Of a stretch of DNA of 64,000 bases, positions 1 to 23,625 are shown in pieces. The notes under the pieces were generated by a model that saw only the letters and a program-made list of their open reading frames with translations, did not search any database and was not told where the DNA came from. The first letter of the stretch is position 1, and every line of letters starts with the position of its first letter. The position numbers and the translations under genes were made by a program. This stretch comes from a virus. The stretch covers positions 1 to 64,000 of IMG/VR virus record IMGVR_UViG_3300032238_000977, one strand, 5' to 3'.

Positions 1-387
1 TAATGCAGAAGTTGCTGCATCGAATGTTGTTGAACCTGTTGGTTGTAATGCAGCACCATAAGAACCATATGGCGAGAATGTCCAAGTGGTTGGTGATACT
101 GCAGGTGCATAATATGGATTAGGTGATCCATTTTGAAGAGTAGGACTTCCAACTGCGGAAAAAGAACCAGCACTAAAAGTTTGATTACCAGTGACTAAGG
201 TAACACCAGTTCCATTGCCCGTAATAGTCCCATTAGTAAGTGTTCCTGTTTGAGATCCAATATTCCAACCAGATAATGAACCTCCTTCAAAATCTGTTCC
301 AGAGATCGTATCTGCAAATGCTGCTGTTGGCACTCCAAGTAAGAGCACAGACGCTGCAGCGAGCGCCTTTTGCGTGTAATTAGACAT
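1..387 (-). CDS. Secreted protein of unknown function, C-terminus outside window
   Basis: An open frame runs from ATG at 387 off the left edge, giving 129 visible codons. The N-terminus looks like a Sec signal peptide: a polar start (MSNYTQKA), an Ala/Leu-rich core and an AFA-DT cleavage site near residue 25. The mature part is rich in Gly, Ser, Thr and Asn and contains DFEGGSLSGWN, a pattern common at the start of beta-sandwich extracellular or carbohydrate-binding domains. No catalytic motif is visible. It follows the lysozyme gene after about 145 bp of leader, so it probably belongs to the late lysis-side block. Function unknown. Confidence 0.7.
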   Translation of the reverse strand, partial: MSNYTQKALAAASVLLLGVPTAAFADTISGTDFEGGSLSGWNIGSQTGTLTNGTITGNGTGVTLVTGNQTFSAGSFSAVGSPTLQNGSPNPYYAPAVSPTTWTFSPYGSYGAALQPTGSTTFDAATSAL

Positions 388-526: not shown

Positions 527-534
527 TATTTATT
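527..534 (-). promoter_or_regulatory. T4 late-type promoter element AATAAATA
   Basis: The minus strand reads AATAAATA, one mismatch from the T4 late -10 consensus TATAAATA. It overlaps the stop codon of the upstream lysozyme gene and would start transcription near 518-520. That gives a leader of about 130 nt for the secreted protein at 387. The leader contains an imperfect inverted repeat, TCACGGAATCGTGA, around 460-475. Confidence 0.45.
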
Positions 535-1198
535 ATCCCTTTTTCCAAGCATCACCTTCTGCCTTTCTTCTACGAGCTAGTCCTGCTTCTACATTAGATC
601 CAGGATTACGGTAGAGGTATAAAGCATCGGGAACTTTGTCCCACTCCTTATTCTTCAGTGTGCGTGTAATAGTGTTGAAGTTATCACCACCATAAAAACC
701 AGCGCCAAGATTATAAGCAAAGGAAAGAAGTGCTCCTCTTTTACCATCAGACATTTCACCCCAGTGTGGGATCTTACGAAGTGATGGAAGAAAGTGCTTC
801 TTACACTCATCAATCAATAGTTCATCTGCTTCTGCTTGAGTAATTTTGTCACCCAAATGAAATGGAGATCCATCTTTCTTACGGGTGCAACCCCAACCAA
901 TTGTGATTGGAAGATTACCTGAGAGTGGATCTGGATATGCATTCAATCTGCAACCTTCAAACTCTTTGATGAGTTTAAGTCCCATCATAGACATATCATC
1001 ACCACTAGTTACAGGAGCTGCAGCGGCAGGTGCTGCTACAGCACTATGCTTTTTTCCTCTAAAAATCTCAGCCCACTCTACATTATCTTCAAGATATTTT
1101 GCAGGTAGGTGATCTTCAATCCACTGAACACCCTTTACATGGTTAGGGTTCTTCTCATCATAAAACTTGAAGAAGTTGTGTAAATCTACTTTTGCCAT
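533..1198 (-). CDS. Endolysin: shared N-terminal module plus GH24 lysozyme domain
   Basis: The protein has 221 aa from ATG 1198, which has a good AGGAG site 7 nt upstream; an upstream in-frame start is rejected. Residues 1-50 form a module that recurs in the next gene upstream (DLHNFFKFYDEKN, EWAEIFR). A flexible Ala/Pro linker (about 53-66) leads to a T4-lysozyme-like GH24 muramidase from about residue 73. FEGCRLNAYPDPLSG supplies the likely catalytic Glu81 and an Asp near 90, followed by ITIGWG. It would cut peptidoglycan glycan strands during lysis. It lies 14 nt downstream of the C39 gene, so the two are probably co-transcribed from the late promoter at 1918. Confidence 0.88.
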   Translation of the reverse strand: MAKVDLHNFFKFYDEKNPNHVKGVQWIEDHLPAKYLEDNVEWAEIFRGKKHSAVAAPAAAAPVTSGDDMSMMGLKLIKEFEGCRLNAYPDPLSGNLPITIGWGCTRKKDGSPFHLGDKITQAEADELLIDECKKHFLPSLRKIPHWGEMSDGKRGALLSFAYNLGAGFYGGDNFNTITRTLKNKEWDKVPDALYLYRNPGSNVEAGLARRRKAEGDAWKKG

Positions 1199-1212
1199 TG
1201 TTCTATCTCCTA

Positions 1213-1893
1213 TCAGTGAAAAATACGACCCCAACCATCGTTGCCGCCTGGGCACCAACGATGCTTAAGAACTGCTTTGGTGTAAATGGTCTTCTTACCA
1301 TTCTCTACTGGACCAGTATAGTTATCATTCAATGAACCATATGGGTCATTGATATAATAACCTTTACCATCTGGAGTAGTACCAATGACTACAACCATGT
1401 GCCCGCCAGTAGGTGCAGAAAGAGAACCCCTATGCAGAATACCAATAACAACAGGTTTTCCAGAAGATAAACTCTTATCAATATCAGAAAAAGAAAGATT
1501 GTAACTAAAGTGTGACTTAACACCATAGCCTTCAAGAACACGGGTTTGAACCGCATGATCTGTTGAATCGCCAATTGCGAATACTTTTTGAACATAGGCA
1601 TCATCGCCCTTGGATCCTTTTAACGTGCCTGGTTTAAGATATTCAAGACACATAGCACAACTAGAACTATTACAAGTACGGTGAGCATCTCTATAGTTAT
1701 CTACTTGATTGAAATAAGGAACTGCCAATACTGCGGGAGTAGGTGGTTTGGTTCTAAAAATTTGTACCCACTCTGTTTCAGAATCGTCCATATATTCAGC
1801 AGGAAGGTTATCCTCTAACCATTGAACTGCTGCTACGTGGTCTGCATTCTTGTCATCATAATACTTAAAAAAGTTATGAAGATCTAGGGTCAT
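1213..1893 (-). CDS. C39-like papain-fold peptidase with the same N-terminal module
   Basis: The protein has 226 aa from ATG 1893. A GTG at 1911 is possible, but the ATG aligns with the paralogous start of the lysozyme gene. Residues 1-49 match the lysozyme N-terminus (DLHNFFKYYDDKN, VQWLEDNLPAEY, EWVQIFRTK). The rest looks like the Peptidase_C39_2 family: VPYFNQ at about 58, putative nucleophile Cys74 in RTCNSSSCAM, His165 in GGHMVVVIG and Asp183 in INDPYG. Inferred role: cutting peptide cross-links or processing a protein during lysis or entry. No signal peptide. The substrate cannot be told from the sequence. Confidence 0.75.
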   Translation of the reverse strand: MTLDLHNFFKYYDDKNADHVAAVQWLEDNLPAEYMDDSETEWVQIFRTKPPTPAVLAVPYFNQVDNYRDAHRTCNSSSCAMCLEYLKPGTLKGSKGDDAYVQKVFAIGDSTDHAVQTRVLEGYGVKSHFSYNLSFSDIDKSLSSGKPVVIGILHRGSLSAPTGGHMVVVIGTTPDGKGYYINDPYGSLNDNYTGPVENGKKTIYTKAVLKHRWCPGGNDGWGRIFH

Positions 1894-1917
1894 TGGATAT
1901 TTTCTAAACACTGAAGA

Positions 1918-4118: not shown

Positions 4119-4151
4119 ATTATACTATGTGAAAGTTAAATTTGAGTTAAA
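4119..4151 (-). promoter_or_regulatory. Pho-box-type promoter of pstS
   Basis: On the minus strand two direct repeats, TTTAACTC (4144-4151) and TTTAACTT (4133-4140), are spaced 11 bp start to start. They fit the cyanobacterial PhoB repeat pattern (Py-TTAA-Py-Py-T/A, 3-bp spacers). A TATAAT lies at 4119-4124, 8 bp downstream, and there is no -35 hexamer, as expected for an activated promoter. A convincing third repeat is not visible. Confidence 0.7.
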
Positions 4152-4165
4152 TGTGTCCAAACACC

Positions 4166-4187
4166 AAAAATCCCCCTTGCGGGGGAT
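4166..4187 (-). terminator. Terminator after the porin gene
   Basis: Minus strand ATCCCCC-GCAA-GGGGGAT followed by TTTTT, 24 nt past the porin stop. Confidence 0.85.
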
Positions 4188-4210: not shown

Positions 4211-5779
4211 TCAGAACTTAAAGGTTGTCTGAATCACACCACCCAAACCATTGAAGGTAGGTTGGTTAGCAGCATTCGTGGTTGAATTGCTTGCTCCAGA
4301 GGCATAGAACAGAGCAGGAGTAACTGAGATATTGTCAGATACTTGAACCTTGTAGAAGAACTCAGCAAGCCAAGGATCACTACCAGAAGCACCAGCAGAG
4401 TTTGCAGGTTGACCAAGAGCAATACCAGCAGCATTACCTTTCACAAAGGCATCATCCCACTGAAGACCAACCATCCAAGAGCGGGAAGATTGTGCTTGTT
4501 TCTGAGCAGTGGCACCAGGAGAAGTGGAGTTACCATTAACAAAGTTATAACCGTAACCTACGCTCACAGAAGGAATTGCTCCAGTGGTTTTGGGTTGCCA
4601 GTAAGCATTCAATGCTACAGCATTTGAATACTGACCAAGACCAAGAGCACTGCCAGCAACACTATTACCATCACGAACACCAGTTTGAGTAGTGCCATAA
4701 CGATAACCAGCAGCAACACCCCACTGAGTTGCTTTATAACCAAGTTGGGTCAGAATGTTGATACCAGACTCGGAATTGAATACACCATAGGAACTATCTG
4801 AACCTGATGCACCATTCTTACAACCAGCAGTACAAGTTGTATTGGAACTGTTTACGGCAGAACCATTCACAACGTAGTTAGCATTGAAGACAAATCCAGG
4901 TTTGCCTTTTGCTACAGGTTGTTTCCATTGTAGACCAACACCTTCACCAGTTGCTTTGTTGTAGACACCACCAGTACCACCAACAGCAAATACATCAAGA
5001 ATATTTGACTTGTATGCAGAAGGAATCCAAGCCATCTCAGTGTTACGAACCAAAGCACCAATGGTCAATTTGGTTGCTTGATTCTTACCAACAGGGAAGG
5101 TATAATAGAGGCGATCAATATAGACTGCATTATTCCAATCTTCTGCTTTATCAAGTTTGAAGATGTTGTTGGTTGAAGTACCGAAAGGATACTTAGAGAA
5201 ATTACCAGTACGAAGACGAGTACGAAGCAAATCTTGTCCAGTATATGAAGTGTCTAGGTTCAGACGAAGATCATAGTTAAAGGTTGTGTTTCCGTATTGT
5301 GGCAATCCAGGGATACCACCAAGAATCATACTTGCTTCACCATTTAGTTTGGTGGTAGTGGAGAATTGTTGTGCCTGAAGGGTACGAACTTTGTTCTCAA
5401 GTCCATCAACACGAGCAGTAAGAACGGTTAGTTCTGTGTCAAACTCAGCAAGAAGTTTGCGAAGTTCATCGGTGCTTTCAGTCACACGATCAAGGCAAGC
5501 ATTCAAAAGTGCCGCTGCCTCAAAACGAGTCAGTGCCTTACCGCCACGGAAAGTTCCGTTGGGATAACCAGCAACGCAACCATATTTCTCAACAAGATTG
5601 CTGAGTGCCTGGTATGCCCAATCCGTAGGACGAACATCAGACAATTGAGTGACGCTCGAAACCTGCTCTCCAGTTGAGTATTGATTGACTGCTGACATAT
5701 TAAGGTCTGCTGCTTGTGCAACAGCAGGAGCAATCATACCCAAAGCAACAGGTGCAAGCATCAGTTGTTTGATTTTCAT
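4211..5779 (-). CDS. SLH-domain outer-membrane porin of cyanobacterial type
   Basis: 522 aa. The signal peptide ends at about residue 23 (AVAQA-AD). An S-layer homology domain spans about 45-98 (LSDVRPTDWAYQAL, GCVAGYPNGTFRGGKALTRFEAA), followed by a short coiled coil (about 103-138, TDELRKLLAEFDTEL onward). The rest is a long beta-rich OprB/Som-type barrel ending in Phe (TTFKF). In cyanobacteria the SLH domain anchors the porin to peptidoglycan and the barrel passes small solutes. It precedes pstS, so phage-directed nutrient (perhaps phosphate) uptake through both cell-envelope layers is a reasonable inference. Probably host-derived; full length with no frameshift. Confidence 0.88.
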   Translation of the reverse strand: MKIKQLMLAPVALGMIAPAVAQAADLNMSAVNQYSTGEQVSSVTQLSDVRPTDWAYQALSNLVEKYGCVAGYPNGTFRGGKALTRFEAAALLNACLDRVTESTDELRKLLAEFDTELTVLTARVDGLENKVRTLQAQQFSTTTKLNGEASMILGGIPGLPQYGNTTFNYDLRLNLDTSYTGQDLLRTRLRTGNFSKYPFGTSTNNIFKLDKAEDWNNAVYIDRLYYTFPVGKNQATKLTIGALVRNTEMAWIPSAYKSNILDVFAVGGTGGVYNKATGEGVGLQWKQPVAKGKPGFVFNANYVVNGSAVNSSNTTCTAGCKNGASGSDSSYGVFNSESGINILTQLGYKATQWGVAAGYRYGTTQTGVRDGNSVAGSALGLGQYSNAVALNAYWQPKTTGAIPSVSVGYGYNFVNGNSTSPGATAQKQAQSSRSWMVGLQWDDAFVKGNAAGIALGQPANSAGASGSDPWLAEFFYKVQVSDNISVTPALFYASGASNSTTNAANQPTFNGLGGVIQTTFKF

Positions 5780-5811
5780 AAAGTTTGTTTTTTTGTACTA
5801 GACGACATTGT

Positions 5812-5880
5812 GAAGATTTACAACAAGGCAAATCTTCGTTATTTAGGGAGTCTTAAGTGATCCTTAAAATACTTTAACAG
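5812..5880 (-). promoter_or_regulatory. Porin upstream region: hairpin plus periodic TTAA repeats
   Basis: An 8-bp inverted repeat (GAAGATTT at 5812-5819 with AAATCTTC at 5830-5837) lies in the expected leader. Upstream, TTAA cores occur at 5853, 5864 and 5874, spaced 11 and 10 bp, with a CTAA core near 5843. The spacing recalls Pho boxes but the flanking bases fit the consensus less well than at pstS. No clear -35/-10 pair. Confidence 0.4.
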
Positions 5881-5902
5881 ATTTCTAAACAATAGTCAAT
5901 AG

Positions 5903-6343: not shown

Positions 6344-7129
6344 TCAGTTGGGCGTTGCTTCAGTGATCCTTCCTAGATAAGGATCATAATCCATCAGACC
6401 AGATATATTTAACTGGGCACCAGTCTGCTGCCAGAAGTTTAAAAGTCCATCATGATTAGCTTTGTGAATAGCATCAATATGATCTGGATGGATGGAAGAA
6501 CCAAGTTCAATCCTATAAAGAAGCAATGGGATACTATAAGTATTTCCAGAATTGTAAATCAAATCGTCTGCAACGGGGCGTGGTTTAACTCCATTATCGA
6601 GACGGTACTTGTCACCTTTAACATGGAACTTAAGAAGTTTTTCTGCATGGTGGCGAGTAATCAAATAGCAAGCGGTTGAAAAATCATTCACAAATCTCTT
6701 GTGCAGTTTTACATGCAAACTACCTGTACAAATAATTGCAATCTGAACAACATCCCAATCATAAGGGATTTTTGAATAGAAATCATCCCAAGTAAAGTCC
6801 CAATACTTGACCAAATCCAAGTTACAATCATCTTCCATGATAATTGCATAAGGACTATTGGAGGTTTCATACCAATGCTTAATTGCTTTTAGGTGAGAAG
6901 TGATACAACCAATTTCACCAGAATTCATCATCTCAGGATATCTACCAGAAATAATATTACTTAGATCATCATCCCTACCGTCGTATGCTGAGATGCGAGT
7001 ATAGTTCTCAATTTCCCAATATTTAAATTGGTACTCCATATAATTTTTTCTATCAGGTTCCCCATCAAGATTAATGTAATAGATGGGTCCAATGTTTTTA
7101 AGTTTGTATGCAGATTTGTTCTTATCCAT
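6344..7129 (-). CDS. GT25-family glycosyltransferase
   Basis: 261 aa. Features of the LPS-type GT25 family: PIYYINLDGEPDRKNYMEYQ near the start, EIGCITSHLKAIKHW, then the acidic motif MEDDCN that holds the metal and nucleotide sugar. The family moves galactose or related sugars onto lipo-oligosaccharide. It is the last gene of the 18.3 kb sugar block. The acceptor is unknown; it could be host LPS or a virion protein. Confidence 0.82.
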   Translation of the reverse strand: MDKNKSAYKLKNIGPIYYINLDGEPDRKNYMEYQFKYWEIENYTRISAYDGRDDDLSNIISGRYPEMMNSGEIGCITSHLKAIKHWYETSNSPYAIIMEDDCNLDLVKYWDFTWDDFYSKIPYDWDVVQIAIICTGSLHVKLHKRFVNDFSTACYLITRHHAEKLLKFHVKGDKYRLDNGVKPRPVADDLIYNSGNTYSIPLLLYRIELGSSIHPDHIDAIHKANHDGLLNFWQQTGAQLNISGLMDYDPYLGRITEATPN

Positions 7130-7133
7130 TTTA

Positions 7134-7943
7134 TTAAAAATATTTTTTAAGATATGTTTGATTGGAATAATACTCCAGTAGTTGGTCCTTACTCATCTTT
7201 TGGATTTTTTCCCATTCTTGCATGTTAGATACCATGAAAGGATTATTGAACCAAGAATTTTCTCCTCTAGAGTGTTCTAAATGATAAACATAGTTTTCAA
7301 TCCTACCTACATTATATCCCAATGCAGTGAATCTGTAAAATCTTTCCTTATCTTCTGGAGCGTATGCTTTGAAATTTTCATTTTCCATTCCACCATCAAT
7401 ATAAACTTGGCGATTAAAAAATTGAGCCCATCCAAAATCAGAAGTATGAAGATTGGAATATTTCTCAAGATATTTAAAATCACATGTTTGTAAGAAATGG
7501 GAGACTATTTCATCTGTTGCCTTTACCTGCTGCTGATACATTCCCTGCCCATAAGGATAAATTACATCGTGGGTATGATGAAGAATTGATAGGTATGCTT
7601 CATGATACGAATCTAAGGGAAGTAAAACATCACAATCATAATTTACAACGATTTCTGTTTTTGCTTCAGCAATCATTTCATTCAGAACTTTCTGACGATG
7701 AAAGAGTGGTTCATTACTCTTCTCAAAAATATGAAAGATATGAGTATCAACATCATAAAAATCTTTTAGAACAGGAACAACATCTCTAATAAAAACAGAT
7801 TCAGAGTCTACCTCTTTGATAATGATGTTTGTATCAAAGTTGTCTATTAAAAATGCTGTTGTTGTAATAACATTACGCAACCTATCTTGAGATTCAATAC
7901 GAATTGGGATAATAAAAGTAGCTTCTGTTAGATCAAATTTCAT
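7134..7943 (-). CDS. GT-A fold glycosyltransferase (GT2/GT7-like)
   Basis: 269 aa. N-terminal TFIIPIRIESQDRLRNV resembles GT2-type starts. VNYDCDVLLP supplies a DxD-type metal site at mid-protein and GWAQFFNRQVYIDGGMENENF resembles the acceptor-side loop of galactosyltransferase-like GT7 enzymes. It overlaps the upstream GT2 gene by 11 nt. Donor and acceptor cannot be assigned. Confidence 0.7.
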   Translation of the reverse strand: MKFDLTEATFIIPIRIESQDRLRNVITTTAFLIDNFDTNIIIKEVDSESVFIRDVVPVLKDFYDVDTHIFHIFEKSNEPLFHRQKVLNEMIAEAKTEIVVNYDCDVLLPLDSYHEAYLSILHHTHDVIYPYGQGMYQQQVKATDEIVSHFLQTCDFKYLEKYSNLHTSDFGWAQFFNRQVYIDGGMENENFKAYAPEDKERFYRFTALGYNVGRIENYVYHLEHSRGENSWFNNPFMVSNMQEWEKIQKMSKDQLLEYYSNQTYLKKYF

Positions 7944-8691
7944 CTGGATATCTTCTATCTTTAATAAAGTTACTATGCTTTTCGTAAATATACTCGATTT
8001 CTTTTGAATTTACCATCCAACTTCCTTCTTCATGATGAAAATAAGCATCATACTGTGAGTTTTGTTGACTACTAATTCTATCATCATGATCTCTATTAGC
8101 TACGAGAACTTCTGGAATAATATTAGGCATTCCATTTTTCCATCTCATTCTATGATAGAACTCGGTATCAAGAAAGAGTTTTAATTTTTCATCAAAATAA
8201 ACTTTTGATTTGTTCAAAAAAGAAACTACAGAGGGACTGCTTAAAAGATTTCTACCTTCAAGCATGTAATCAGTCCACCTTGGAAGTTTCTCTTCATAGA
8301 AATTCTTACCATCTTTAGTCCCACAAAATCCACTAAAAACCCATTTACATTCTTTGTTTTTATACTGCCTATAAATTATTTCTAAAGAATCTTTTCTAAC
8401 AAAAATATCATCAGAAAACATTATCTTAATAATTCTACCTGTACAATTATCTAAAGCAACATTAATATTTTCACAAGGAACAGATCCTGTGTATTTTACA
8501 TAAGTAAATTCAAAAAAATCAGAATACTCTTGACAGACATCCAATATCAAATCATTTTTACTTTGGTCAGATACAACAACTTCAAAATTTTGAAATGTTT
8601 GTTCCTTTAATGATTCTAGAAGTTCCCTCATCCAGAGAGGTCCATTTTCACCTCTATCATGTGCAGGTATTGCAATTGAAAATTCTTTCAT
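7933..8691 (-). CDS. Family 2 glycosyltransferase
   Basis: 252 aa from ATG 8691, which forms ATGA with the upstream stop; an in-frame start 15 nt earlier lies inside the neighbour. Typical GT2: FSIAIPAHDRGENGPLWMRE, ESLKEQTFQNFEVVVSDQS, then FSDD as the DXD-equivalent. The C-terminal part with LDTEFYHRMRWKNG fits the acceptor half. Inverting transfer of a sugar from an NDP-sugar is the expected reaction. Confidence 0.82.
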   Translation of the reverse strand: MKEFSIAIPAHDRGENGPLWMRELLESLKEQTFQNFEVVVSDQSKNDLILDVCQEYSDFFEFTYVKYTGSVPCENINVALDNCTGRIIKIMFSDDIFVRKDSLEIIYRQYKNKECKWVFSGFCGTKDGKNFYEEKLPRWTDYMLEGRNLLSSPSVVSFLNKSKVYFDEKLKLFLDTEFYHRMRWKNGMPNIIPEVLVANRDHDDRISSQQNSQYDAYFHHEEGSWMVNSKEIEYIYEKHSNFIKDRRYPDEI

Positions 8692-9482
8692 CAGATTCTT
8701 TCCCACCTTTCGGGGACAAGATCAGAATCATCCAATTCAGCCTTATCCCCGAACCAATTTTTAGGAGCGATTACTCTTTTAGAATTAGATAACCATGCTC
8801 CCCACCAAGAGAATGATGAATTAGCAACAATGTGATAATCACACATCGTCATCAAGCACAGATCAACTACATTACTATTGGATTCGGAAACAAGGAATCT
8901 ATCAGATTCAAAAATCTCTTGTGCTTTGCACCAACGAACATCGTCAGAAAAAATAACAACAGGAATATCAGCATTAAGTTTGGATAATGCCTCTTCATAA
9001 TATTCCATTGAACAAATGGGATGATAATCCTGTTTACCCAAATAGTCCCCTCTACGAATATGAAGAGAAATTGCTTCTGTTCCAAAGGAAAACATTTCCT
9101 TACATGGTTTTACAATTTCATCTTTAAAGGTGAAGTCTTTTTTAATTTCATCTTCAATGTGAGAAAAATATTTCTCGGATTGAAAAAATCCATAAAGATT
9201 AATATTATCCTCACAATTATCAAATAGTTCTTGATCAAAATTGAAACCTTTTTCTTGGATGTAAGGTGCGCCCAAAACTTTTACTTCTTTTACAGACTCA
9301 AGTTTAAAGGCATCAAAAAGTTGATGATCTTTTTCTTCGCCAGCTTTTGGTTCTACCCGAAAATCGCTTGGAGGAATGCACCATTCATATTCATGTTTTT
9401 CTGCAATTCCCTTCAGTGCAGCATACTGGAACATTTGATTTCCAAGTCTACCGTTTCTACCTAAGTGGTTATAACCAATCAT
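8691..9482 (-). CDS. GT11 alpha-1,2-fucosyltransferase-like enzyme (copy A)
   Basis: 263 aa from ATG 9482, with GAGGT just upstream. GT11 hallmarks: LGRNGRLGNQMFQYAALKGI at the N-terminus, the GDP-binding SLHIRRGDYLG, the VVIFSDD strand and the C-terminal IVANSSFSWWGAWLS. The family transfers L-fucose, or a related L-sugar, from a GDP donor. A close paralogue lies at 20174-21028 and two more distant ones at 10943 and 15934. Confidence 0.88.
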   Translation of the reverse strand: MIGYNHLGRNGRLGNQMFQYAALKGIAEKHEYEWCIPPSDFRVEPKAGEEKDHQLFDAFKLESVKEVKVLGAPYIQEKGFNFDQELFDNCEDNINLYGFFQSEKYFSHIEDEIKKDFTFKDEIVKPCKEMFSFGTEAISLHIRRGDYLGKQDYHPICSMEYYEEALSKLNADIPVVIFSDDVRWCKAQEIFESDRFLVSESNSNVVDLCLMTMCDYHIVANSSFSWWGAWLSNSKRVIAPKNWFGDKAELDDSDLVPERWERI

Positions 9483-9489
9483 AATTACC

Positions 9490-10161
9490 TCATCGAATAT
9501 CCTGAACAAAAAAATGAAAACCAAAAGTATCTACACCGTCATGATGTGGTGATATATGCCTTTCTTTTGAAAATTTAGCCGCAACTTCTATTGGAGCAAA
9601 CTTACATCCTTGCTCTTCATATATATGCCTATTATGTACACATATATTTCCATCTTCCGAAGTAGATCCATAATTAAAATGCTTATAGAAATCTCCTTGA
9701 TTAACTTCCCATTCAATATATGCATTCTTAGGAACATCAAGAAGTTTTTTACTTCTAAAAGAAAATCCACCATTACCGACAGAAATATGCTCACCAAAAG
9801 GAGTTATGAATGATGCTTCTTCCCATCTCCATGGGGCTCCGATGTAATCGTAGTTGAGCCATTCATTATCCCATTTCCACGGTCTAATAACATACCCATC
9901 CGGTTGAACAAGTAAACAATACTCAGTATCGATATGTTGAGTAAGATTATAGATGCAATAATAGTTGTAATCATGGATTGATTCTATCTTGTAACATTGC
10001 GAAAATTCAATCCCTCCAGGTAAATTTCCAGGATCTTCATGAGTGATCAATTTAGTTGCGCCAAAGTTAATTCCCTCCATACTTTTTTGGAGGGCATAGA
10101 CTGCTCCAGGAATATTATTTGATGAAATGCAGAATAAAGTTACATTTGGTAAGTTAATCAT
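9490..10161 (-). CDS. DUF5672-type putative glycosyltransferase
   Basis: 223 aa. The pattern YDYIGAPWRW ... VGNGGFSFRSKKLLD and TEYCLLVQPDGYVI matches DUF5672 proteins found among O-antigen and capsule genes. The stop-start overlap with the FkbM gene is ATGA. Probably a GT-A-like transferase, but no reaction is established. Confidence 0.75.
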   Translation of the reverse strand: MINLPNVTLFCISSNNIPGAVYALQKSMEGINFGATKLITHEDPGNLPGGIEFSQCYKIESIHDYNYYCIYNLTQHIDTEYCLLVQPDGYVIRPWKWDNEWLNYDYIGAPWRWEEASFITPFGEHISVGNGGFSFRSKKLLDVPKNAYIEWEVNQGDFYKHFNYGSTSEDGNICVHNRHIYEEQGCKFAPIEVAAKFSKERHISPHHDGVDTFGFHFFVQDIR

Positions 10162-10925
10162 TTTTTATTACGTTCAGATTCATTAATTTGTTCATAGTTA
10201 AATTTTAAATCTTTTCTAACCATAAAGATATTACCACCTTGTCCCCAAGGACAATCTTGTCCCCAAGGACCTCTAACCAAAAGTCCATGAAGATCTTCAT
10301 GGAATTCTTCATCAATTGGAGTTAAGAGAGGAAAGTTTTTATCTTCAATTGAAAAAGTATGACCAGGATCTTTCAGATAATAACAATCGTGTGTACTCTG
10401 ATATTGTTCAACTACACTCCAGACATTATAGTTGTCTAGATCAGGCCAACCTCTTCCATACTCAAATTGGATGTATTTGATATCTTTAATAATATCATAA
10501 TACTCTAGTATTTCTGGTTCAGATCCCTCAATATCAATTTTTAGATAATCAATTTTTCCAACAATATCACATTCTTCCATAACCTCATCAAACTTTCTAA
10601 TCTTTACTAGAGATAAATTACTTCCAGTGAATCTATGACGTTGAATGGATTCCATGCGTTCATCATATTCAACTTCTGCATTTTTATTAGAAAGTCCAAA
10701 AGCAAAAGTAGATATATTAAATTCTTTATCTTTGATACTTTCGTTCAATTTTTCTATAAAATATTCACTAGTATCAAAAAGATACATTTTAGTGGTTGGA
10801 CTGATTAATGCATATTCGTAGTTTTCTCTACAACCAATATCCACAAGAACATCAACGTCATCTTTGACTATTTCAAATATTTTTAATTCATAATAAACTT
10901 GTGTAACTAGGTCAGTTGAAGACAT
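10158..10925 (-). CDS. FkbM-family SAM methyltransferase (copy A)
   Basis: 255 aa from ATG 10925 with GAGGA upstream; a TTG 12 nt earlier is less likely. VLVDIGCRENYEYAL is the SAM-binding loop and IDYLKIDIEGSEPEILE is the FkbM signature. Such enzymes commonly O-methylate sugars or glycolipid headgroups, which fits the neighbourhood. Confidence 0.82.
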   Translation of the reverse strand: MSSTDLVTQVYYELKIFEIVKDDVDVLVDIGCRENYEYALISPTTKMYLFDTSEYFIEKLNESIKDKEFNISTFAFGLSNKNAEVEYDERMESIQRHRFTGSNLSLVKIRKFDEVMEECDIVGKIDYLKIDIEGSEPEILEYYDIIKDIKYIQFEYGRGWPDLDNYNVWSVVEQYQSTHDCYYLKDPGHTFSIEDKNFPLLTPIDEEFHEDLHGLLVRGPWGQDCPWGQGGNIFMVRKDLKFNYEQINESERNKK

Positions 10926-10942
10926 TTTTTTCCTCAAAAAAA

Positions 10943-11878
10943 TTAATACTTATAATCATAATTATCTCTTTCTTCTATACAAACTGAACTTGGATAAAGA
11001 TCTCCATCTTTATCCATCCACAACCATTTCTCATCAGAAACAATACTATCCCAAGGTCTCCACCAACCAGTAGACCTAGACCAATCAAACCAATACTTAG
11101 GAACTATAACATTTTTCAATTCATTATTAGTCCATATAGGCCAAAAGGCAAAAGTGGACGAAGATATAATTGCGTACTTACATGTATTTAAAATACTGTA
11201 ATCAATTGAAACTGGACCACCAGGATACTTATACCAAGAAATATTTCCCTGATATTGATCCTTTTCCTCCGAAATTGCAGATCCCACAACTTCAACTCCT
11301 GGAATCAATTTCCTAGCAGTATGAGGATCATCCGTAACGATAACAAATTTGATATTAGGATTATTATCTAACATATGCTTCATTGCATTTTGATAATATT
11401 CCGAAGGAAGCATAGAACCACCAGTTGTATAATCACCTCCACGAATTTGAATTACACAAATATCTTCAGAAGAATAATCCCTAACTTTATACTTATCATC
11501 ATAAGATAACCATTCACAAATTTTATCACGATAATCTTCAATATACTTCATTCTTTGAAAATCACCATTTAAATAGGTATTATCCTTAATAGTGAGAAGA
11601 TTTTCGTCAACATATCCAACTGGTCCTACTGGACCATGAACCCAATGCTCATGGTAATAAGAATCAATCCCTTCAGGAAAAACTTCCGGTACATCAGAAT
11701 CTGTTTCAATATTTAAATCAATATTCTTACCAAAATCAAAATTAAGAAAAGGTCCACGCCAACCCGGATGACTAATTGCATAATCATATCCAAGACGATC
11801 TGCAATAACTCTACAGGTAACCGCTCTCCAAATCTGGTTTCCAAGACCAGCATGTTGATGAATACTTACTGCTAACAT
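10943..11878 (-). CDS. GT11-like fucosyltransferase family protein (divergent)
   Basis: 311 aa. LAVSIHQHAGLGNQIWRAV and ICVIQIRGGDYTTGG match the GT11 entry loop and the GDP-contact motif. The C-terminal ISSSTFAFWPIWTNN replaces the SSFSWWGAWL motif of copies A and B, so acceptor use may differ. Confidence 0.72.
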   Translation of the reverse strand: MLAVSIHQHAGLGNQIWRAVTCRVIADRLGYDYAISHPGWRGPFLNFDFGKNIDLNIETDSDVPEVFPEGIDSYYHEHWVHGPVGPVGYVDENLLTIKDNTYLNGDFQRMKYIEDYRDKICEWLSYDDKYKVRDYSSEDICVIQIRGGDYTTGGSMLPSEYYQNAMKHMLDNNPNIKFVIVTDDPHTARKLIPGVEVVGSAISEEKDQYQGNISWYKYPGGPVSIDYSILNTCKYAIISSSTFAFWPIWTNNELKNVIVPKYWFDWSRSTGWWRPWDSIVSDEKWLWMDKDGDLYPSSVCIEERDNYDYKY

Positions 11879-11880
11879 GA

Positions 11881-12477
11881 TTAAATCCTATGATATTTGT
11901 TACTGTATTTTTTTCTAAGTATAGTTAAACCATTATTCCAAGGAAGAGTTGCCCACTCCCAGAACTGAGGATTAAGTTCTGCAACAGCCCGATAAGGACC
12001 ACCCCCAGCCCATTGCCCATCTTTTAAAGTTAAATCTGAATGATAAAATGGATCAGTATTTCCATACATTAAATCGTGAAGTAAGATAATACTACTAGGA
12101 CCTACCAATTCATCAAGAAGTTCTAATTGTTTTTTAACGTGAGGATATGAATGCCAATCATCAACGTAAACAATATCAATTTTTTTATCTTTAGGCCATT
12201 GCTCAAGAAACTCAATACTATCTTGTTTGCAGAAAGTATAATTTCCGTTATTTGGTCTAAACTCTGTAGGTGAATTAATATCCACCGACCATAGATGACC
12301 ATTATTTAATTTTGCTGCTTCATACAAAGGTTCTGTTGTATGCCCTTCTCTAACTCCAAGTTCAACATAAGTTTTACCTTTTGAAGCTAAAGCGATTGAA
12401 AAAATTGAAATAATATGTCGGTCAGAATCTAGACCTCCATGCAATGCTTTATTGCAAAAATTATTTAACGAGTTCAT
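11881..12477 (-). CDS. Class I SAM methyltransferase (Methyltransf_24-like)
   Basis: 198 aa. TYVELGVREGHTTEPLYEAA is the glycine loop, LWSVDINSP binds the ribose hydroxyls and IDIVYVDDWHSYPHVKKQLE is the VDGxH-type motif of Methyltransf_24/CmcI-like enzymes. A sugar or glycan O-methylation role is inferred from context. Overlaps the upstream gene by 17 nt. Confidence 0.72.
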   Translation of the reverse strand: MNSLNNFCNKALHGGLDSDRHIISIFSIALASKGKTYVELGVREGHTTEPLYEAAKLNNGHLWSVDINSPTEFRPNNGNYTFCKQDSIEFLEQWPKDKKIDIVYVDDWHSYPHVKKQLELLDELVGPSSIILLHDLMYGNTDPFYHSDLTLKDGQWAGGGPYRAVAELNPQFWEWATLPWNNGLTILRKKYSNKYHRI

Positions 12478-13417
12478 TTATGCTTGAATACTTATTTACA
12501 ATATTATCATAAAAATGAGGAAGGGTCAATCCGTTAAGATTCATAGACTTGACTTTTTGATAGAGATGATCATTTTCTATTAAAAGATTTTCATCTAAAT
12601 CTTCATATTGATCAACAAAAAGTATCGGATAATCTTTATACAATTCCTCCAAATATGGATGTCTCCGCATTACAGGAACTCTTCTAAGATATATTACTTC
12701 CCAATTTCTATGACAGTCTAGTGCATTACCAATTGGACATATTATAAATTTGTGATTTAAAATCTTTTTTAAAAAAGATTCATAATCAACTCTTTCCCTA
12801 TCAACTAGTGCCCATTTCTTATCTTCAAATATTTCATTAATACCAAGTCTTTCTTTTGGATTAGTATTAATGCTATGGTTTATGTATAAGAGATTTGATG
12901 GGTCAAAATCCTTATATTTTTTCATAACAAAATTGAGAATTTGATTCCTATTATCGGATGAATTCATTTGTCTTTGAAGTCCATACGGAGCAGGGATAAC
13001 TTTACCTCCCCAAGAAACTGCATTTGTAGCAGAAATACACCGTACATTATTCGGAATCAAATCAAATATAAATTCATCTATTGGAGTGTCTTCTAAATTT
13101 GTAAAGATTATGAAGTTCATGTCTTTAAAATTAGAACACAAATTTAAAAGATCGCTCGTCTCCATTAAAGATTGGACATATTTTTTATCTTCTGGTTTTA
13201 CATCTTTAATATCCCTTTTGTAAAGTCTGATATTATCGATAAAAAGAGTCATATAATTACGTCTCTTTTTTATCTCAAATAATTTACTTACAAATTCAAG
13301 ATTAGTTAAGTTTGCATCTTTCATAAAAGATGTGAAAATATTACCCCATTGCCCAGACTGGTCTCCGAAGGAATAATCACATAATTTGGAAAGTGCTACA
13401 CCTTCAATTAATTCCAT
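12461..13417 (-). CDS. Putative exostosin-like glycosyltransferase
   Basis: 318 aa. The C-terminal KFIICPIGNALDCHRNWEVIYLRRVPVM resembles the nucleotide-sugar site of exostosin/GT47-type proteins (CPxGxGxDxHRxWE). The N-terminal half is not recognised. The overlap with the GT17 gene is 10 nt. A GT-B transferase is the best guess. Confidence 0.6.
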   Translation of the reverse strand: MELIEGVALSKLCDYSFGDQSGQWGNIFTSFMKDANLTNLEFVSKLFEIKKRRNYMTLFIDNIRLYKRDIKDVKPEDKKYVQSLMETSDLLNLCSNFKDMNFIIFTNLEDTPIDEFIFDLIPNNVRCISATNAVSWGGKVIPAPYGLQRQMNSSDNRNQILNFVMKKYKDFDPSNLLYINHSINTNPKERLGINEIFEDKKWALVDRERVDYESFLKKILNHKFIICPIGNALDCHRNWEVIYLRRVPVMRRHPYLEELYKDYPILFVDQYEDLDENLLIENDHLYQKVKSMNLNGLTLPHFYDNIVNKYSSINELVK

Positions 13418-14268
13418 GGTTTAATAAACGAAGAATACTTTTCTTGATTATTCAAGATATATTCTGGAAAACTATCGTCCAAAGGAACTGTAGGATAAAC
13501 AACTCCCCTGTTCAATGGGTCCAATCCGTTTTCTATTTTTTCTTCGGCAGTATCAATTACATCAGGAACATTCATATGACAGTCTGCACAAGCAGAAAGT
13601 TTTGCTCTGAACTTTTCAGCGTCTCCAAAATAACTCCAATGCCATCCACCAGATTCTATTTTGTATGATGTTTCAACACTTTGCCTCAGTTGATCTGCAC
13701 TAATTTCTTTTAGATGTTTCCAAGAACATAGTCTACTACCAAACCAATTTTCTTGATAAAGAATATTTAATTTATAATAAAATGATCTTTGAAGGCAAGC
13801 GTAATGATTATTGGGATCAAACCAATCCAAATCTTCTAAAATATATGGATTAATAATTTCATCGGCATCGCTTACAATTACAATATCATCATCTGTTATT
13901 CCAGCTTTGATTAGACCATAAACAGTACAATCCCTAGCATAGATGTCTCGTTGGTATCTAAGTGGAATTTGATGAAAAGGTTGCCCACAATTAACATCAA
14001 TATTTTTGTATGGTGTATGATATTGCTTTTTCTCAATATAATCTGAAAAATCTGTTGGGATAGTTTCAGTGATATTGTGAATTATTTTATCATTAAATTT
14101 AGAAAATTTATCTTTATTTTCCAAATAGTAAAGTGGTTTCTCATTCCCACTGATTGTAAAAGGAGATTCAGTGAGAACAAAAAAATCAACTACATCATTT
14201 AAAATATTAAGTCTTAATTCTAGAAGTTCCAGTTCATTGAAAAATCTAAAAGTATCAAAAACTTTCAT
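13408..14268 (-). CDS. GT17-family N-acetylglucosaminyltransferase-like protein
   Basis: 286 aa from ATG 14268. Strong resemblance to GT17 (MGAT3-type) proteins: VFDTFRFFNELELLELRLNI, VVDFFVLTESPFTISG, then VIVSDADEIINP (metal-binding DAD) and GGWHWSYFG. The family adds GlcNAc to mannose-containing glycans; bacterial and viral members have unknown acceptors. Confidence 0.82.
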   Translation of the reverse strand: MKVFDTFRFFNELELLELRLNILNDVVDFFVLTESPFTISGNEKPLYYLENKDKFSKFNDKIIHNITETIPTDFSDYIEKKQYHTPYKNIDVNCGQPFHQIPLRYQRDIYARDCTVYGLIKAGITDDDIVIVSDADEIINPYILEDLDWFDPNNHYACLQRSFYYKLNILYQENWFGSRLCSWKHLKEISADQLRQSVETSYKIESGGWHWSYFGDAEKFRAKLSACADCHMNVPDVIDTAEEKIENGLDPLNRGVVYPTVPLDDSFPEYILNNQEKYSSFIKPWN

Positions 14269-14269
14269 A

Positions 14270-14938
14270 TTAATCTCTTGCAATTACAATTAATCCATTA
14301 TTTTCTTCAGTCTCATAATTAATTTCCCATTCAGGATTTTCTTCCAAGAATTCGTCAATTGCTTTTTTGATTCCACCCTCGCCATCCAAACTGTCTCTAT
14401 TTGGATGGTTTACATCCATACTAGGATATCCTTCTCCCCTTTTACCATAAGTAAAAGTATCATGAAAGGCAATATACTTTCTTACTTTACCTGCATGAAG
14501 TTCTAGTTCTTTTTTAAGTTGATCGTAGCAATGCCATGTATCAATGAAAAGAAGATCAGTTTCTTCAATTTCAATTGTGAGAACATCTGCACCAATATAC
14601 TCACAGTTAACTCCCAGTTCTTTTGCTTTTTCAAAGATAGAAATTAATTGGTTAACTTCACTAACTAGATGTGGTTCTGGGTTTTCATACTGATAATCGT
14701 AAGAAATAAATTTTTTAGGATTTGCATAAAGGAATGCTCGTGTACTATTTCCTCCTCTAGCTCCCATTTCAGTTACATGCTCACAGTCTTGTGCATATTG
14801 ATACAATACTGGTAGATGTTGGTAAATGTCGGATACATAACACTCACATGCTTCATCATAAAGTTCTTTCAAACTAAATGGTTTTTCAATCTTAGGTTTT
14901 TTATTTTTTGGGGTATAGACAAGTATTTGTGGTTTCAT
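14270..14938 (-). CDS. Class I SAM methyltransferase of the sugar block
   Basis: 222 aa. CEHVTEMGARGGNSTRAFL is motif I, KFISYDYQYE the post-I strand and TDLLFIDTWHCYDQLKKELE the IDTWH motif shared with CmcI-like enzymes. FHDTFTYGKRGEGY follows. Same general class as the product at 11881-12477, but not a close copy. Confidence 0.72.
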   Translation of the reverse strand: MKPQILVYTPKNKKPKIEKPFSLKELYDEACECYVSDIYQHLPVLYQYAQDCEHVTEMGARGGNSTRAFLYANPKKFISYDYQYENPEPHLVSEVNQLISIFEKAKELGVNCEYIGADVLTIEIEETDLLFIDTWHCYDQLKKELELHAGKVRKYIAFHDTFTYGKRGEGYPSMDVNHPNRDSLDGEGGIKKAIDEFLEENPEWEINYETEENNGLIVIARD

Positions 14939-14941
14939 TTT

Positions 14942-15934
14942 TTACTCCTTCCAATAGTCATAGATTCCTTGATTAACTTCATAACTCATATTCTTAACCT
15001 TTCTGTTTGGTTCTTTCATAGCCCAAACAAAAACCTTTTCAATCAATTCTTCAAGATTCGTATTATCTTGAAATTGTAACATTGACTTAGCCTTTGTATG
15101 ATCACAATAAGCATGTTTAACTTCATGTCTGGGTTGTCCATGCTCGATAGGCACATCATACCCATATTTTCTTCCTATTTTTTGGACCGTTTCTGCAACT
15201 TCATTTAATGAGAAATGCTTATCTGCCCCAATATTAAAAATTTCTCCGTCATAATCTGTTAACAGTTTATCAAACGGTTCCATATAATATTTAATATCAG
15301 AAAAAGCTCGTGTCTGGTTACCGTCACCATACACCAAGATAGGTTGATTATTTAGAGTTTTGCGAATAAAAATTCCAATAACATTGCGATAACGATCCCA
15401 GATATTCTGATAGATTCCCAGAACATTGTGGGGGCGAACAATATTATATCTCAAACCAAATTGTTCGTGAGCAAGTTTTAAATCACACTCAACAGCATAT
15501 TTTGCTACGCCATAAGGATCAATTGGTTGTGGTCTTTTATCTTCGATAAAAGGTGGTTCTTGAGCACCATACACAGCCATACTAGATGTAAAAATCATTT
15601 TAGTATTATGATTAATACACTCATTAATTAAATTTGCTGAGCAAATAAGATTATTTCTGTAGTTGTAGTTCCTAATAAATGGGGATAATCCTTCAGCAGC
15701 ATAAGCTGCAAAATGAAGAAGAACATCTGGTTTATGCTCCTCAAACAATTCAACTATTTTTTTCCTCTTCTCTAGATTAAGTTTTACAAAAGTAAAGTTC
15801 TCACCCTTCGTTACGAAAGATTTGTATCCACCAGACAGATCATCTATTCCGATTACTTCATGACCCCTAGATAACAAGTGCCTAGTGTAATTTGCGCCAA
15901 GAAGACCAGCACATCCCGTTACAAATATTTTCAT
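14942..15934 (-). CDS. NAD-dependent nucleotide-sugar epimerase (extended SDR)
   Basis: 330 aa. Rossmann motif TGCAGLLGANY at 7-17, GIDDLSGG, FTSSMAVYG and the catalytic pair in YGVAKYAVE. It resembles UDP-glucose 4-epimerases and related enzymes. It would interconvert the hexoses used by the neighbouring transferases. The exact substrate is unknown. Its ATG overlaps the upstream stop by one base. Confidence 0.82.
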   Translation of the reverse strand: MKIFVTGCAGLLGANYTRHLLSRGHEVIGIDDLSGGYKSFVTKGENFTFVKLNLEKRKKIVELFEEHKPDVLLHFAAYAAEGLSPFIRNYNYRNNLICSANLINECINHNTKMIFTSSMAVYGAQEPPFIEDKRPQPIDPYGVAKYAVECDLKLAHEQFGLRYNIVRPHNVLGIYQNIWDRYRNVIGIFIRKTLNNQPILVYGDGNQTRAFSDIKYYMEPFDKLLTDYDGEIFNIGADKHFSLNEVAETVQKIGRKYGYDVPIEHGQPRHEVKHAYCDHTKAKSMLQFQDNTNLEELIEKVFVWAMKEPNRKVKNMSYEVNQGIYDYWKE

Positions 15935-16770
15935 TATTCTAATCCATATTTAACAATAAATTTTCTTTGCTCTTCGGTATTATACCATCCACCACCCTCA
16001 TGTGGATGGATTTTGATATAATTATCTAATTCCATTTCATGGACCTTAACATCAGTACTATAAAATATACTATGGTTTAGATTTTCAGTCAATAGCAAAT
16101 CTGTTGTGTAAATATCAGTCACATTACTAGAGCACAATGCGGAAGCCATTGCAAATGTGCCTACTCCAGATAGACCAACATGTTTAGATCTCATAAATGT
16201 AGAAATATCTTCGGAATTGCTCAAATGCTGAATTTTAATTTTATCAATTTTTTCCAATTCTGAAATTAAAGGATTATTATTGTCTGGTTGAGTTACAATA
16301 ATAGTGTTCTTAAAAGATTCAATAAGTCTCAAATAAAATACTAGAGGATTTGGAATATAATTCGTAGGAGGTTCAAAAATCTTATGGTATAAATCACCAC
16401 TTCTTAAATGAATTACAATAGTATCATCATCAAAAGGATCTCCAACTTCAACATTTAAATTTGGAGAAATATAATCTTTACAAACTCTACGCATATTTGC
16501 GTAAAGATATTCCCTACTCAATCCAATTTCATTCCCACCTTCAAAGACATCAGTTGTAGAATTATACCATTGTTGCCATGCAAAAAATCTTCCAGGAGTT
16601 ATAGAATCTTGCTCCTGTTCTCCAAAAGAAATTTTAAATTTTTTAATTATTTCATGATCTAAAGTTTGTTCAAAATTTGTTTTTTTATGCTCAGCAAGCA
16701 TGATTGCGTTTGCTACCTGCTGAATATTATTTCCAAACTGACCGGACCAATGAGAAACTGTATAAGTCAT
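15934..16770 (-). CDS. GT11-like glycosyltransferase (divergent)
   Basis: 278 aa. SHWSGQFGNNIQQVANAI and TIVIHLRSGDLYHKI correspond to the GT11 GxGNQ loop and HxRxGD motif. GLSGVGTFAMASALCSSN is near the expected C-terminal site. Likely a GDP-sugar-using transferase. Overlaps FkbM copy B as ATGA. Confidence 0.6.
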   Translation of the reverse strand: MTYTVSHWSGQFGNNIQQVANAIMLAEHKKTNFEQTLDHEIIKKFKISFGEQEQDSITPGRFFAWQQWYNSTTDVFEGGNEIGLSREYLYANMRRVCKDYISPNLNVEVGDPFDDDTIVIHLRSGDLYHKIFEPPTNYIPNPLVFYLRLIESFKNTIIVTQPDNNNPLISELEKIDKIKIQHLSNSEDISTFMRSKHVGLSGVGTFAMASALCSSNVTDIYTTDLLLTENLNHSIFYSTDVKVHEMELDNYIKIHPHEGGGWYNTEEQRKFIVKYGLE

Positions 16771-17438
16771 TCCTTACCTTTGATAAAAAGTTCAACGCAT
16801 TCAATAAAATGACTTTCAAAAGGTTTCCATTTTTCTTCAGGAACAATCTCAGGATCAACGTACCAATCTTCAAACGGATTGTTACCATTAGCCACATGGT
16901 AAGCAACTAATTTATATCCAAGATCTTGTAGCAGTTCTCTAGACTCTTTAACTACATCTTGATTTCCACCAGCATAAACATCAGTTTCAAATGTAATAAC
17001 ATTAAATCTATATTTTTTAAGATCAATTGCTTTAAGTGCTGCAAGCGTTTGTTTAGCAGGTTCAATGTCTACTTGTAGATAATCAATCCTATTTGGAAGA
17101 TTATATTTTTCAAAATACTCACTATAGTTTACAGTGGTTGCATCGCAGGTGATAATTGGATTTTTCCTCTCATCCTCAAACATTTTGTTGAGGAGTTTGT
17201 CTCTATCAAAAGAGACTCCAGTCCAATCAAATTCACTCTCTAAAACATAAGTATTATTATAATCTATTGGATAACTTGACCCAATTTCTACATATGTTCC
17301 GTTCCTTTTTCCATCAAGAACTGTGAGAACAAATAAATCTTGGTACGCCTGGGAATAAGTTCTTTTTAATTTATCAGAACCTTTGAAGGTATGAAGCAAT
17401 TCATCTTTATGAGCTTCATAATAAGTATTAATATTCAT
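16767..17438 (-). CDS. FkbM-like methyltransferase (copy B)
   Basis: 223 aa. YSQAYQDLFVL and NGTYVEIGSSYPIDYNNTYV form the SAM site; IDYLQVDIEPAKQTLAAL parallels the FkbM KIDxEG motif but with EPA in place of EGS. A late-type TATAAATA element lies 45 nt upstream, so this gene may start a late sub-operon. Confidence 0.72.
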   Translation of the reverse strand: MNINTYYEAHKDELLHTFKGSDKLKRTYSQAYQDLFVLTVLDGKRNGTYVEIGSSYPIDYNNTYVLESEFDWTGVSFDRDKLLNKMFEDERKNPIITCDATTVNYSEYFEKYNLPNRIDYLQVDIEPAKQTLAALKAIDLKKYRFNVITFETDVYAGGNQDVVKESRELLQDLGYKLVAYHVANGNNPFEDWYVDPEIVPEEKWKPFESHFIECVELFIKGKE

Positions 17439-17482
17439 TCAAGATCTCCAAACAAAAATAATTAATTTAAAAATTATAGAAA

Positions 17483-17490
17483 TATTTATA
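17483..17490 (-). promoter_or_regulatory. T4 late-type TATAAATA inside the sugar block
   Basis: A perfect TATAAATA on the minus strand, overlapping the dehydrogenase stop, in one of the few gaps of the block. It would serve the genes from 17438 leftward. Confidence 0.6.
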
Positions 17491-21872: not shown

Positions 21873-21877
21873 TTTAC

Positions 21878-23613: not shown

Positions 23614-23625
23614 AATTATATAAAA

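What the first reader, a model, noticed from the sequence alone, without database searches (positions are those of the whole stretch)
4211..5779. A full-length cyanobacterial SLH-domain porin in a phage genome
Seen: signal peptide, SLH domain, coiled coil and a long beta-rich barrel ending in Phe, 522 aa with no break. Known: this architecture is the cyanobacterial Som/OprB-type outer-membrane porin. Inference: the phage remodels host envelope permeability during infection, or changes the surface to block other phages. Placed directly upstream of pstS, the two genes would cover outer-membrane passage and periplasmic capture of phosphate.
Basis: partly seen in the sequence, partly recalled or inferred. 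Interest (0 to 1): 0.72.

Follow-up and report, generated by a model that had tools for sequence, protein, structure and literature searches.

The report
Phage-carried phosphate-stress porin beside pstS
A virus of picocyanobacteria carries an intact copy of its host's outer-membrane pore protein, placed beside a phosphate-capture gene as in the host's own phosphate-starvation gene island, so infected cells are probably made to take up more phosphorus.

Summary
4211-5779(-) is an intact 522-aa SLH + coiled-coil + 16-strand barrel protein, matching NCBIfam NF033921 (por_somb) from model position 1 to 485 of 485. It lies in a T4-like cyanophage record. It is not unique: isolate S-SRM01 has an annotated "porin" (59% identity), and 114 IMG/VR stretches encode relatives. 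The phage copies form one clade, distinct from host porins, under purifying selection (dN/dS 0.05-0.32).

The phosphate reading gained support.
- In 25 of 71 phage loci with enough sequence, pstS follows the porin within 700 bp, at two different genomic sites.
- In 43 porin-bearing contigs searched whole, all 15 that hold pstS have it beside the porin.
- Those pstS genes come from at least two sources (one origin rejected, p-AU 1.6e-5), so the pairing was rebuilt or pstS was swapped in place.
- The nearest host homologue is also directly upstream of pstS, in a phoB-phoR-ptrA-arsJ island. Ten host genomes show this order.
- Window pstS has a strong Pho-box promoter. The porin is a separate transcription unit without a significant Pho box.

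Best reading: a P-stress (PhoE-type) porin-pstS module captured from host. Iron uptake is the main rival. Blocking of other phages has no specific support. Transport specificity and virion absence are untested.

The parts
4211..5779 (-). SLH-domain outer-membrane porin, 522 aa, intact (por_somb / OprB type)
5705..5779 (-). signal peptide (residues 1-25, AQA-AD cleavage motif; read by eye)
   Evidence: translation; region 84% identical on average among phage copies
5513..5641 (-). SLH domain (residues 47-89), expected peptidoglycan or cell-wall anchor
   Evidence: Pfam PF00395 E 4e-9; 86% mean identity among phages, 82% among hosts
5366..5527 (-). coiled-coil helix (residues 85-138) between SLH and barrel
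   Evidence: AlphaFold2 model
4214..5356 (-). 16-strand beta-barrel (residues 142-522), ending in Phe
   Evidence: AlphaFold2 strands 142-521; Foldseek OprB 4gey and OmpM1 8byt; PF04966
3134..4096 (-). pstS, periplasmic phosphate-binding protein, 320 aa
   Evidence: phrog_5385 E 5e-129; TIGR00975 over cut-off
4122..4151 (-). Pho boxes TTTAACTCAAATTTAACTTTCACATAGTAT in front of pstS; second box 8 nt before TATAAT
   Evidence: best three-box score of the window on either strand; shuffle p about 0.01
4170..4187 (-). intrinsic-terminator-like stem-loop with T-rich tail between porin and pstS
5871..5899 (-). sigma70-like promoter TTGACT-17-TAAAGT of the porin (consensus match only)
   Evidence: 30 of 49 representative phage loci carry a TTGACN-16..19-TA-type promoter match within 200 nt
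5840..5846 (-). CTAAATA, possible T4-type late-promoter element
   Evidence: within 130 nt upstream of the porin in 26 of 49 loci against 0.017 expected per locus; 9 of 9 copies in the window on the coding strand
5812..5837 (-). leader hairpin (GAAGAUUUGC...GUAAAUCUUC)
   Evidence: z-score -2.2
5795..5806 (-). leader element GTCGTCTAGTAC, found only in front of phage porins

Best explanation
This is a phage-adapted copy of the picocyanobacterial phosphate-stress porin (the PhoE / PMM0709 kind of SLH-OprB porin), kept beside pstS as a phosphorus-acquisition module taken from a host phosphate island. Proposed working: during infection the porin is exported (Sec, then the host BAM machinery; inferred), inserts as a 16-strand barrel in the outer membrane and is tethered to the wall by its SLH domain (inferred from homology). 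It raises influx of phosphate or small organophosphates. Phage PstS then binds phosphate in the periplasm and hands it to the host PstCAB transporter (established for PstS; inferred here). Phage pstS is switched on by host PhoB through its Pho box in P-starved cells. The porin is read from its own promoter, probably early and possibly again late, and in many relatives it carries a Pho-like box as well. Shown: architecture, synteny, phylogeny, purifying selection, and the Pho-box signal. Inferred: cargo, timing and benefit.
For: Complete family member. pstS within 700 bp downstream in 25 of 71 phage loci. In 43 porin-bearing contigs searched whole, all 15 with pstS have it next to the porin. 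The pair sits in two different genomic contexts (tail lysozyme / Dps, or glycosyltransferases / hli / peroxiredoxin / endolysin). Phage porins are compatible with one clade (AU p 0.55), while porin-linked pstS genes have at least two origins (AU p 1.6e-5), so the coupling was rebuilt or kept through a swap. The nearest host, G090, has the same porin-pstS order (pstS 71% identical) beside phoB-like, phoR-like, ptrA (over cut-off), arsJ (over cut-off) and the ArsJ-linked gap. Ten host genomes have the order. Pho-box pairs of at least 10 bits: pstS upstream 18 of 19, porin upstream 22 of 51, expected 0.02 per region. dN/dS 0.05-0.32. Literature: MED4 PMM0709 (phoE, OprB domain) rises 10- to 700-fold under P starvation and may pass organic P (PMC5451487); MIT9312 PhoE rises more than 15-fold (PMC3349580); PMM0710 and PMT9312_0722, the next locus tags, are pstS (PMC1906773).
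Against: The majority of porin phages searched, including isolate S-SRM01, have no detected pstS, so the porin can be useful without it (many records are fragments). In this window the porin's own upstream scores only about 5 bits for Pho boxes (p 0.17), and the host porins show none either. NCBI names the family 'iron uptake porin', and a ferritin/Dps gene follows the porin in many relatives. Pho-box prediction in phages is known to be unreliable without binding assays (PMC10976474). The AlphaFold model is of moderate confidence.
Confidence: 0.6

Rival explanations
1. Iron uptake: the porin passes iron for the phage or the infected cell, and its link to Dps/ferritin reflects iron handling; the pstS link arises because P and Fe stress are co-regulated.
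For: NF033921 is named 'iron uptake porin'. A ferritin-domain gene (family 2) occurs near the porin in 22 of 49 representative phages. Synechocystis slr1908, an iron-selective porin, is induced by P deficiency through PhoB (PMC11126600).
Against: The family name covers the host Som-like porin tested as well, so it does not discriminate. The Dps link holds in one of two genomic contexts only, while pstS follows the porin in both. Nearest host copies sit beside pstS, in one case in a phosphate island.
Confidence: 0.18
2. General permeability or envelope maintenance: the porin replaces host porins lost by shut-off of host synthesis, or raises influx of many small solutes; pstS is one of several nearby genes of use in infection.
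For: The porin occurs without pstS in many phages. Neighbours include hli, ferredoxin-like, peroxiredoxin and Dps genes.
Against: Does not explain why pstS, when present, is always next to the porin, in both contexts and from two sources.
Confidence: 0.14
3. Surface change that blocks superinfecting phages: the phage porin displaces or masks host receptor porins. Classical precedent, from memory: the Lc/NmpC porin of lambdoid phage PA-2.
For: Extracellular loops L1 and L5-L8 are the most variable parts (42-59% mean identity against 76% for strands among phages) and the phage loops are far less acidic than host loops (net -1.5 against about -10).
Against: Host porin loops vary even more (11-28% for those loops), so loop variability is ordinary for porins. 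Linkage is to pstS and Pho boxes, not to known exclusion genes. A lytic T4-like phage has a short window for exclusion.
Confidence: 0.05
4. Virion component: an SLH or porin protein carried in the particle, for example for adhesion.
For: S-PM2 has an SLH protein annotated 'putative S-layer protein'; the AF2 model matches it weakly.
Against: Signal peptide, complete barrel, C-terminal Phe and closest kinship to host outer-membrane porins; the S-PM2 and S-CREM1 proteins lack the barrel.
Confidence: 0.03

Closest known systems
Picocyanobacterial P-stress porin PhoE (MED4 PMM0709, MIT9312 PMT9312_0721)
   Same: OprB-domain porin with a locus tag next to pstS; the same porin-pstS order was found here in ten host genomes, one of them inside a pho island
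   Different: Encoded by a phage; forms a separate phage clade; much lower GC3 (30% against 67-90% in near hosts); less acidic extracellular loops. Direct orthology to PMM0709 was not tested because its sequence was not at hand
Porin of Synechococcus phage S-SRM01 (QPX48248.1)
   Same: Same family, 59% identical over full length, in an isolated T4-like freshwater cyanophage, same phage clade
   Different: No pstS anywhere in S-SRM01; next recognised gene is Dps; its paper does not discuss the porin
Cyanophage pstS / phoA phosphate genes (P-SSM2, S-SM1 and others)
   Same: Host-derived phosphorus acquisition genes in T4-like cyanophages; P-SSM2 pstS is controlled by host PhoBR (stated in PMC10976474)
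   Different: There pstS is preceded by a DUF680-type, hsp20 or unnamed small gene in other regions and is of different pstS origin; no porin
Iron-selective porin slr1908 (Synechocystis)
   Same: Outer-membrane porin under PhoB control (PMC11126600)
   Different: Characterised for iron; cellular, not phage
OmpM1 of Veillonella (8BYT, 8BYS)
   Same: SLH-anchored porin; SLH part matches by sequence and barrel by fold
   Different: Firmicute protein, remote (about 13% identity in the structural alignment)
Lc/NmpC porin of lambdoid phage PA-2 (from memory)
   Same: Precedent for a phage-encoded outer-membrane porin
   Different: Temperate phage, OmpF/OmpC family; effect is replacement of host porins and receptor exclusion

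Membership tests
por_somb / SLH-OprB cyanobacterial porin | Full-length match to curated model over cut-off | tested here: met
   NF033921, 267 bits against cut-off 100, model 1-485 of 485
por_somb / SLH-OprB cyanobacterial porin | Single N-terminal SLH domain followed by coiled coil | tested here: met
   PF00395 residues 47-89; helix 85-138
por_somb / SLH-OprB cyanobacterial porin | 16-strand barrel ending in aromatic residue | tested here: met
   16 strands 142-521, C-terminal F522; mean pLDDT 67
por_somb / SLH-OprB cyanobacterial porin | Outer-membrane localisation and channel activity | not testable with these tools
   needs expression, fractionation and bilayer recording
PhoE-type P-stress porin | Located beside pstS or in a pho gene cluster | tested here: met
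   window 114 bp upstream of pstS; nearest host in phoBR-ptrA-arsJ-pstS island
PhoE-type P-stress porin | Clusters in the tree with host pstS-linked porins | tested here: met
   nearest hosts L121, then L122-L127, most of them directly upstream of pstS
PhoE-type P-stress porin | Own PhoB-binding site | tested here: not met
   window porin upstream about 5 bits, p 0.17; met in 22 of 51 relatives; host porins also lack it, so this is not a strict criterion
PhoE-type P-stress porin | Induction in P-starved infected cells | not testable with these tools
   needs RNA-seq of infections
Iron uptake porin (slr1908 sense) | Iron conductance | not testable with these tools
   family name only
Host-derived metabolic gene in a lytic cyanophage | Phage context, host homologue, intact ORF under purifying selection | tested here: met
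   isolate S-SRM01
Virion structural protein | Presence in purified particles | not testable with these tools
   no proteome available

The most novel reading that the evidence does not exclude
Cyanophages run a two-membrane phosphorus-scavenging module: a phage-evolved outer-membrane porin, with loops recharged relative to host porins and lysines shared with the host's P-island porins, coupled repeatedly to pstS from different sources and moved between genome sites. It would be the first viral remodelling of the outer membrane for nutrient uptake that I know of.
Probability: 0.4. Interest if true: 0.78.

Novelty: new variant of a known kind. Interest (0 to 1): 0.6.

Why it matters
Phage pstS and phoA are well-known host-derived phosphorus genes, but they act inside the outer membrane. 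A conserved phage porin paired with pstS says that phages also control the first barrier. It gives a testable case of nutrient-uptake remodelling at the outer membrane, with an isolate (S-SRM01) already available for the porin alone.

Tried and rejected
Pho box in front of the window porin: first noted by eye (TTAA repeats at 10-11 nt), rejected as not significant by the matrix, though enriched in relatives. Gene disrupted: rejected, intact here and in the phage copies. Single joint origin of all phage porin-pstS pairs: rejected for pstS, not for porin. Rfam search of the porin/pstS region: nothing. PHROGs: no porin family, so this library gives no help. Net-charge shift as a simple proxy for P function: pstS-linked and unlinked host porins do not differ (p 0.46), so the shift is a phage trait, not evidence of phosphate selectivity. 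Literature searches for a published cyanophage porin found no discussion; the library is open-access only.

Full report
OBSERVATION. The ORF at 4211-5779(-) is real, intact and 522 aa long. It matches Pfam SLH (47-89) and OprB (102-502) over their cut-offs, and NCBIfam NF033921 por_somb over the whole model, 267 bits against 100. AlphaFold2 on 40 relatives gives a helix at 85-138 and 16 strands at 142-521 (mean pLDDT 67, N-terminus poor). Foldseek finds OprB (4gey) and SLH porin OmpM1 (8byt) among the best solved structures. A sequence search finds the same SLH porin group (8bym, 8bys). The window belongs to a 78.4-kb virus record with T4-like replication genes and 12 tRNAs.

NOT UNIQUE. Synechococcus phage S-SRM01, a freshwater isolate, has an annotated porin at 59% identity over full length; its paper does not discuss it. 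S-PM2 and S-CREM1 carry SLH proteins of about 280-290 aa without the barrel. In IMG/VR 114 candidate stretches encode relatives; the loci read in full are open.

PHYLOGENY AND SELECTION. In a tree of 49 phage and 40 host porins the phage copies group together with one host, L121; holding the phages together gives a slightly better tree (AU p 0.55). Pairwise dN/dS is 0.12-0.32 for the window against relatives and 0.05-0.17 within other phage pairs. GC3 is 30% against 67-90% in near hosts, which fits long residence in phages.

LINK TO pstS. pstS lies 114 bp downstream in the window and within 700 bp in 25 of 71 phage loci that hold at least 1.5 kb downstream. In 43 porin-bearing contigs searched whole, 15 hold pstS and in all 15 it is beside the porin (14 directly, one at 1.4 kb). 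The pair occurs in two contexts: lysozyme-like gene / porin / (pstS) / ferritin-Dps, and glycosyltransferase / porin / (pstS) / hli / ferredoxin-like / peroxiredoxin / endolysin. So it behaves as a unit that moves. The pstS tree puts the window's pstS and that of L015 with the porin-linked pstS of hosts G090 and G135 (support 99), and the other phages' pstS in a separate clade; a single origin is rejected (AU p 1.6e-5). Porins look like one lineage and pstS like at least two, so pstS was re-recruited or replaced beside the same porin. That is the strongest hint of joint function. The isolates' pstS (P-SSM2 type and S-SM1 type) are different again and lie elsewhere.

HOST COUNTERPART. The nearest host homologue (G090) is directly upstream of pstS, whose product is 71% identical to the phage PstS. 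The same stretch holds a PhoB-like regulator, a PhoR/PnpS-like kinase, PtrA (over cut-off), ArsJ and the ArsJ-linked GAPDH (over cut-off). The porin-pstS order occurs in ten sampled host genomes: G090, G130, G081, G115, G149, G054, G152, G039, G120 and G135. In the literature MED4 PMM0709 (phoE, OprB domain) rises 10-700 fold under P starvation and was proposed to pass organic P (PMC5451487), and MIT9312 PhoE rises more than 15 fold (PMC3349580); the neighbouring locus tags PMM0710 and PMT9312_0722 are pstS (PMC1906773). Direct orthology of the window protein to PMM0709 was not tested.

REGULATION. A matrix built from published cyanobacterial Pho boxes (PMC1906773) puts the window's best three-box site in front of pstS (4151-4122), 8 nt before TATAAT. 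Across representatives, pairs of at least 10 bits lie upstream of pstS in 18 of 19 and of the porin in 22 of 51, against about 0.02 expected per region. The window's own porin does not reach significance, nor do host porins. Between porin and pstS is a terminator-like stem, so they are probably two units. The porin has a sigma70-like promoter match, CTAAATA (found in the 130 nt upstream in 26 of 49 relatives, 0.017 expected), a leader hairpin, and a phage-only leader element GTCGTTTAGTAC about 27 nt before the start. Published gel shifts warn that Pho boxes predicted in phages often fail (PMC10976474).

SEQUENCE TRAITS. K208, K211, K257 and K349 are nearly fixed in phages and mostly present in the near-host clade, but rare in other host porins. 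This is a clade trait and may or may not bear on anion passage. Phage extracellular loops are much less acidic than host ones. Loops vary more than strands, in hosts even more than in phages.

INTERPRETATION. A phosphorus-acquisition module (porin plus pstS) taken from a host phosphate island best explains the recurrence, the two pstS sources and the host synteny. The iron rival stays open because of the family name, the Dps neighbour and the PhoB-controlled iron porin slr1908 (PMC11126600). Blocking of other phages and a virion role have no positive evidence. Cargo, timing and benefit need experiments.

Noticed in passing
window 5795-5806(-): Leader element GTCGTTTAGTAC (here GTCGTCTAGTAC) sits about 27 nt before the start of phage porins; in the 191 loci fetched by then the exact form occurs only there. 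Function unknown.
   Followed up: partly
L003:3935-4813 and L004:3932-4771: S-CREM1 and S-PM2 encode SLH proteins related to the porin N-terminus but without a barrel (the S-CREM1 product is named 'iron uptake porin').
   Followed up: partly
L049 and L064 (contig IMGVR_UViG_3300044631_000905): One phage contig carries two different porin copies about 15 kb apart.
   Followed up: no
L013:10052-10684 and the same place in about 20 other loci: A ferritin/Dps-like gene follows the porin (or porin-pstS) in one of the two genomic contexts.
   Followed up: partly
G004:C1:215553-216513 (L036): pstS next to the porin is split into two overlapping pieces in different frames: frameshift or assembly error.
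   Followed up: no
window 6344-24675(-): Long run of consecutive minus-strand ORFs upstream of the porin; of the two scored, 6344-7129 is a phage glucosyltransferase family and 7134-7943 an unknown family; others look like sugar-modifying enzymes by eye.
   Followed up: no
window 533-1258(-) and 1213-1911(-): Adjacent lysozyme-domain and C39-peptidase-domain genes that match the two halves of one PHROG (phrog_3617): a possibly split endolysin.
   Followed up: no
phage porin barrels: Phage barrels carry mean net charge +9 against about -4 in host porins, mostly from loss of acidic residues in extracellular loops.
   Followed up: partly
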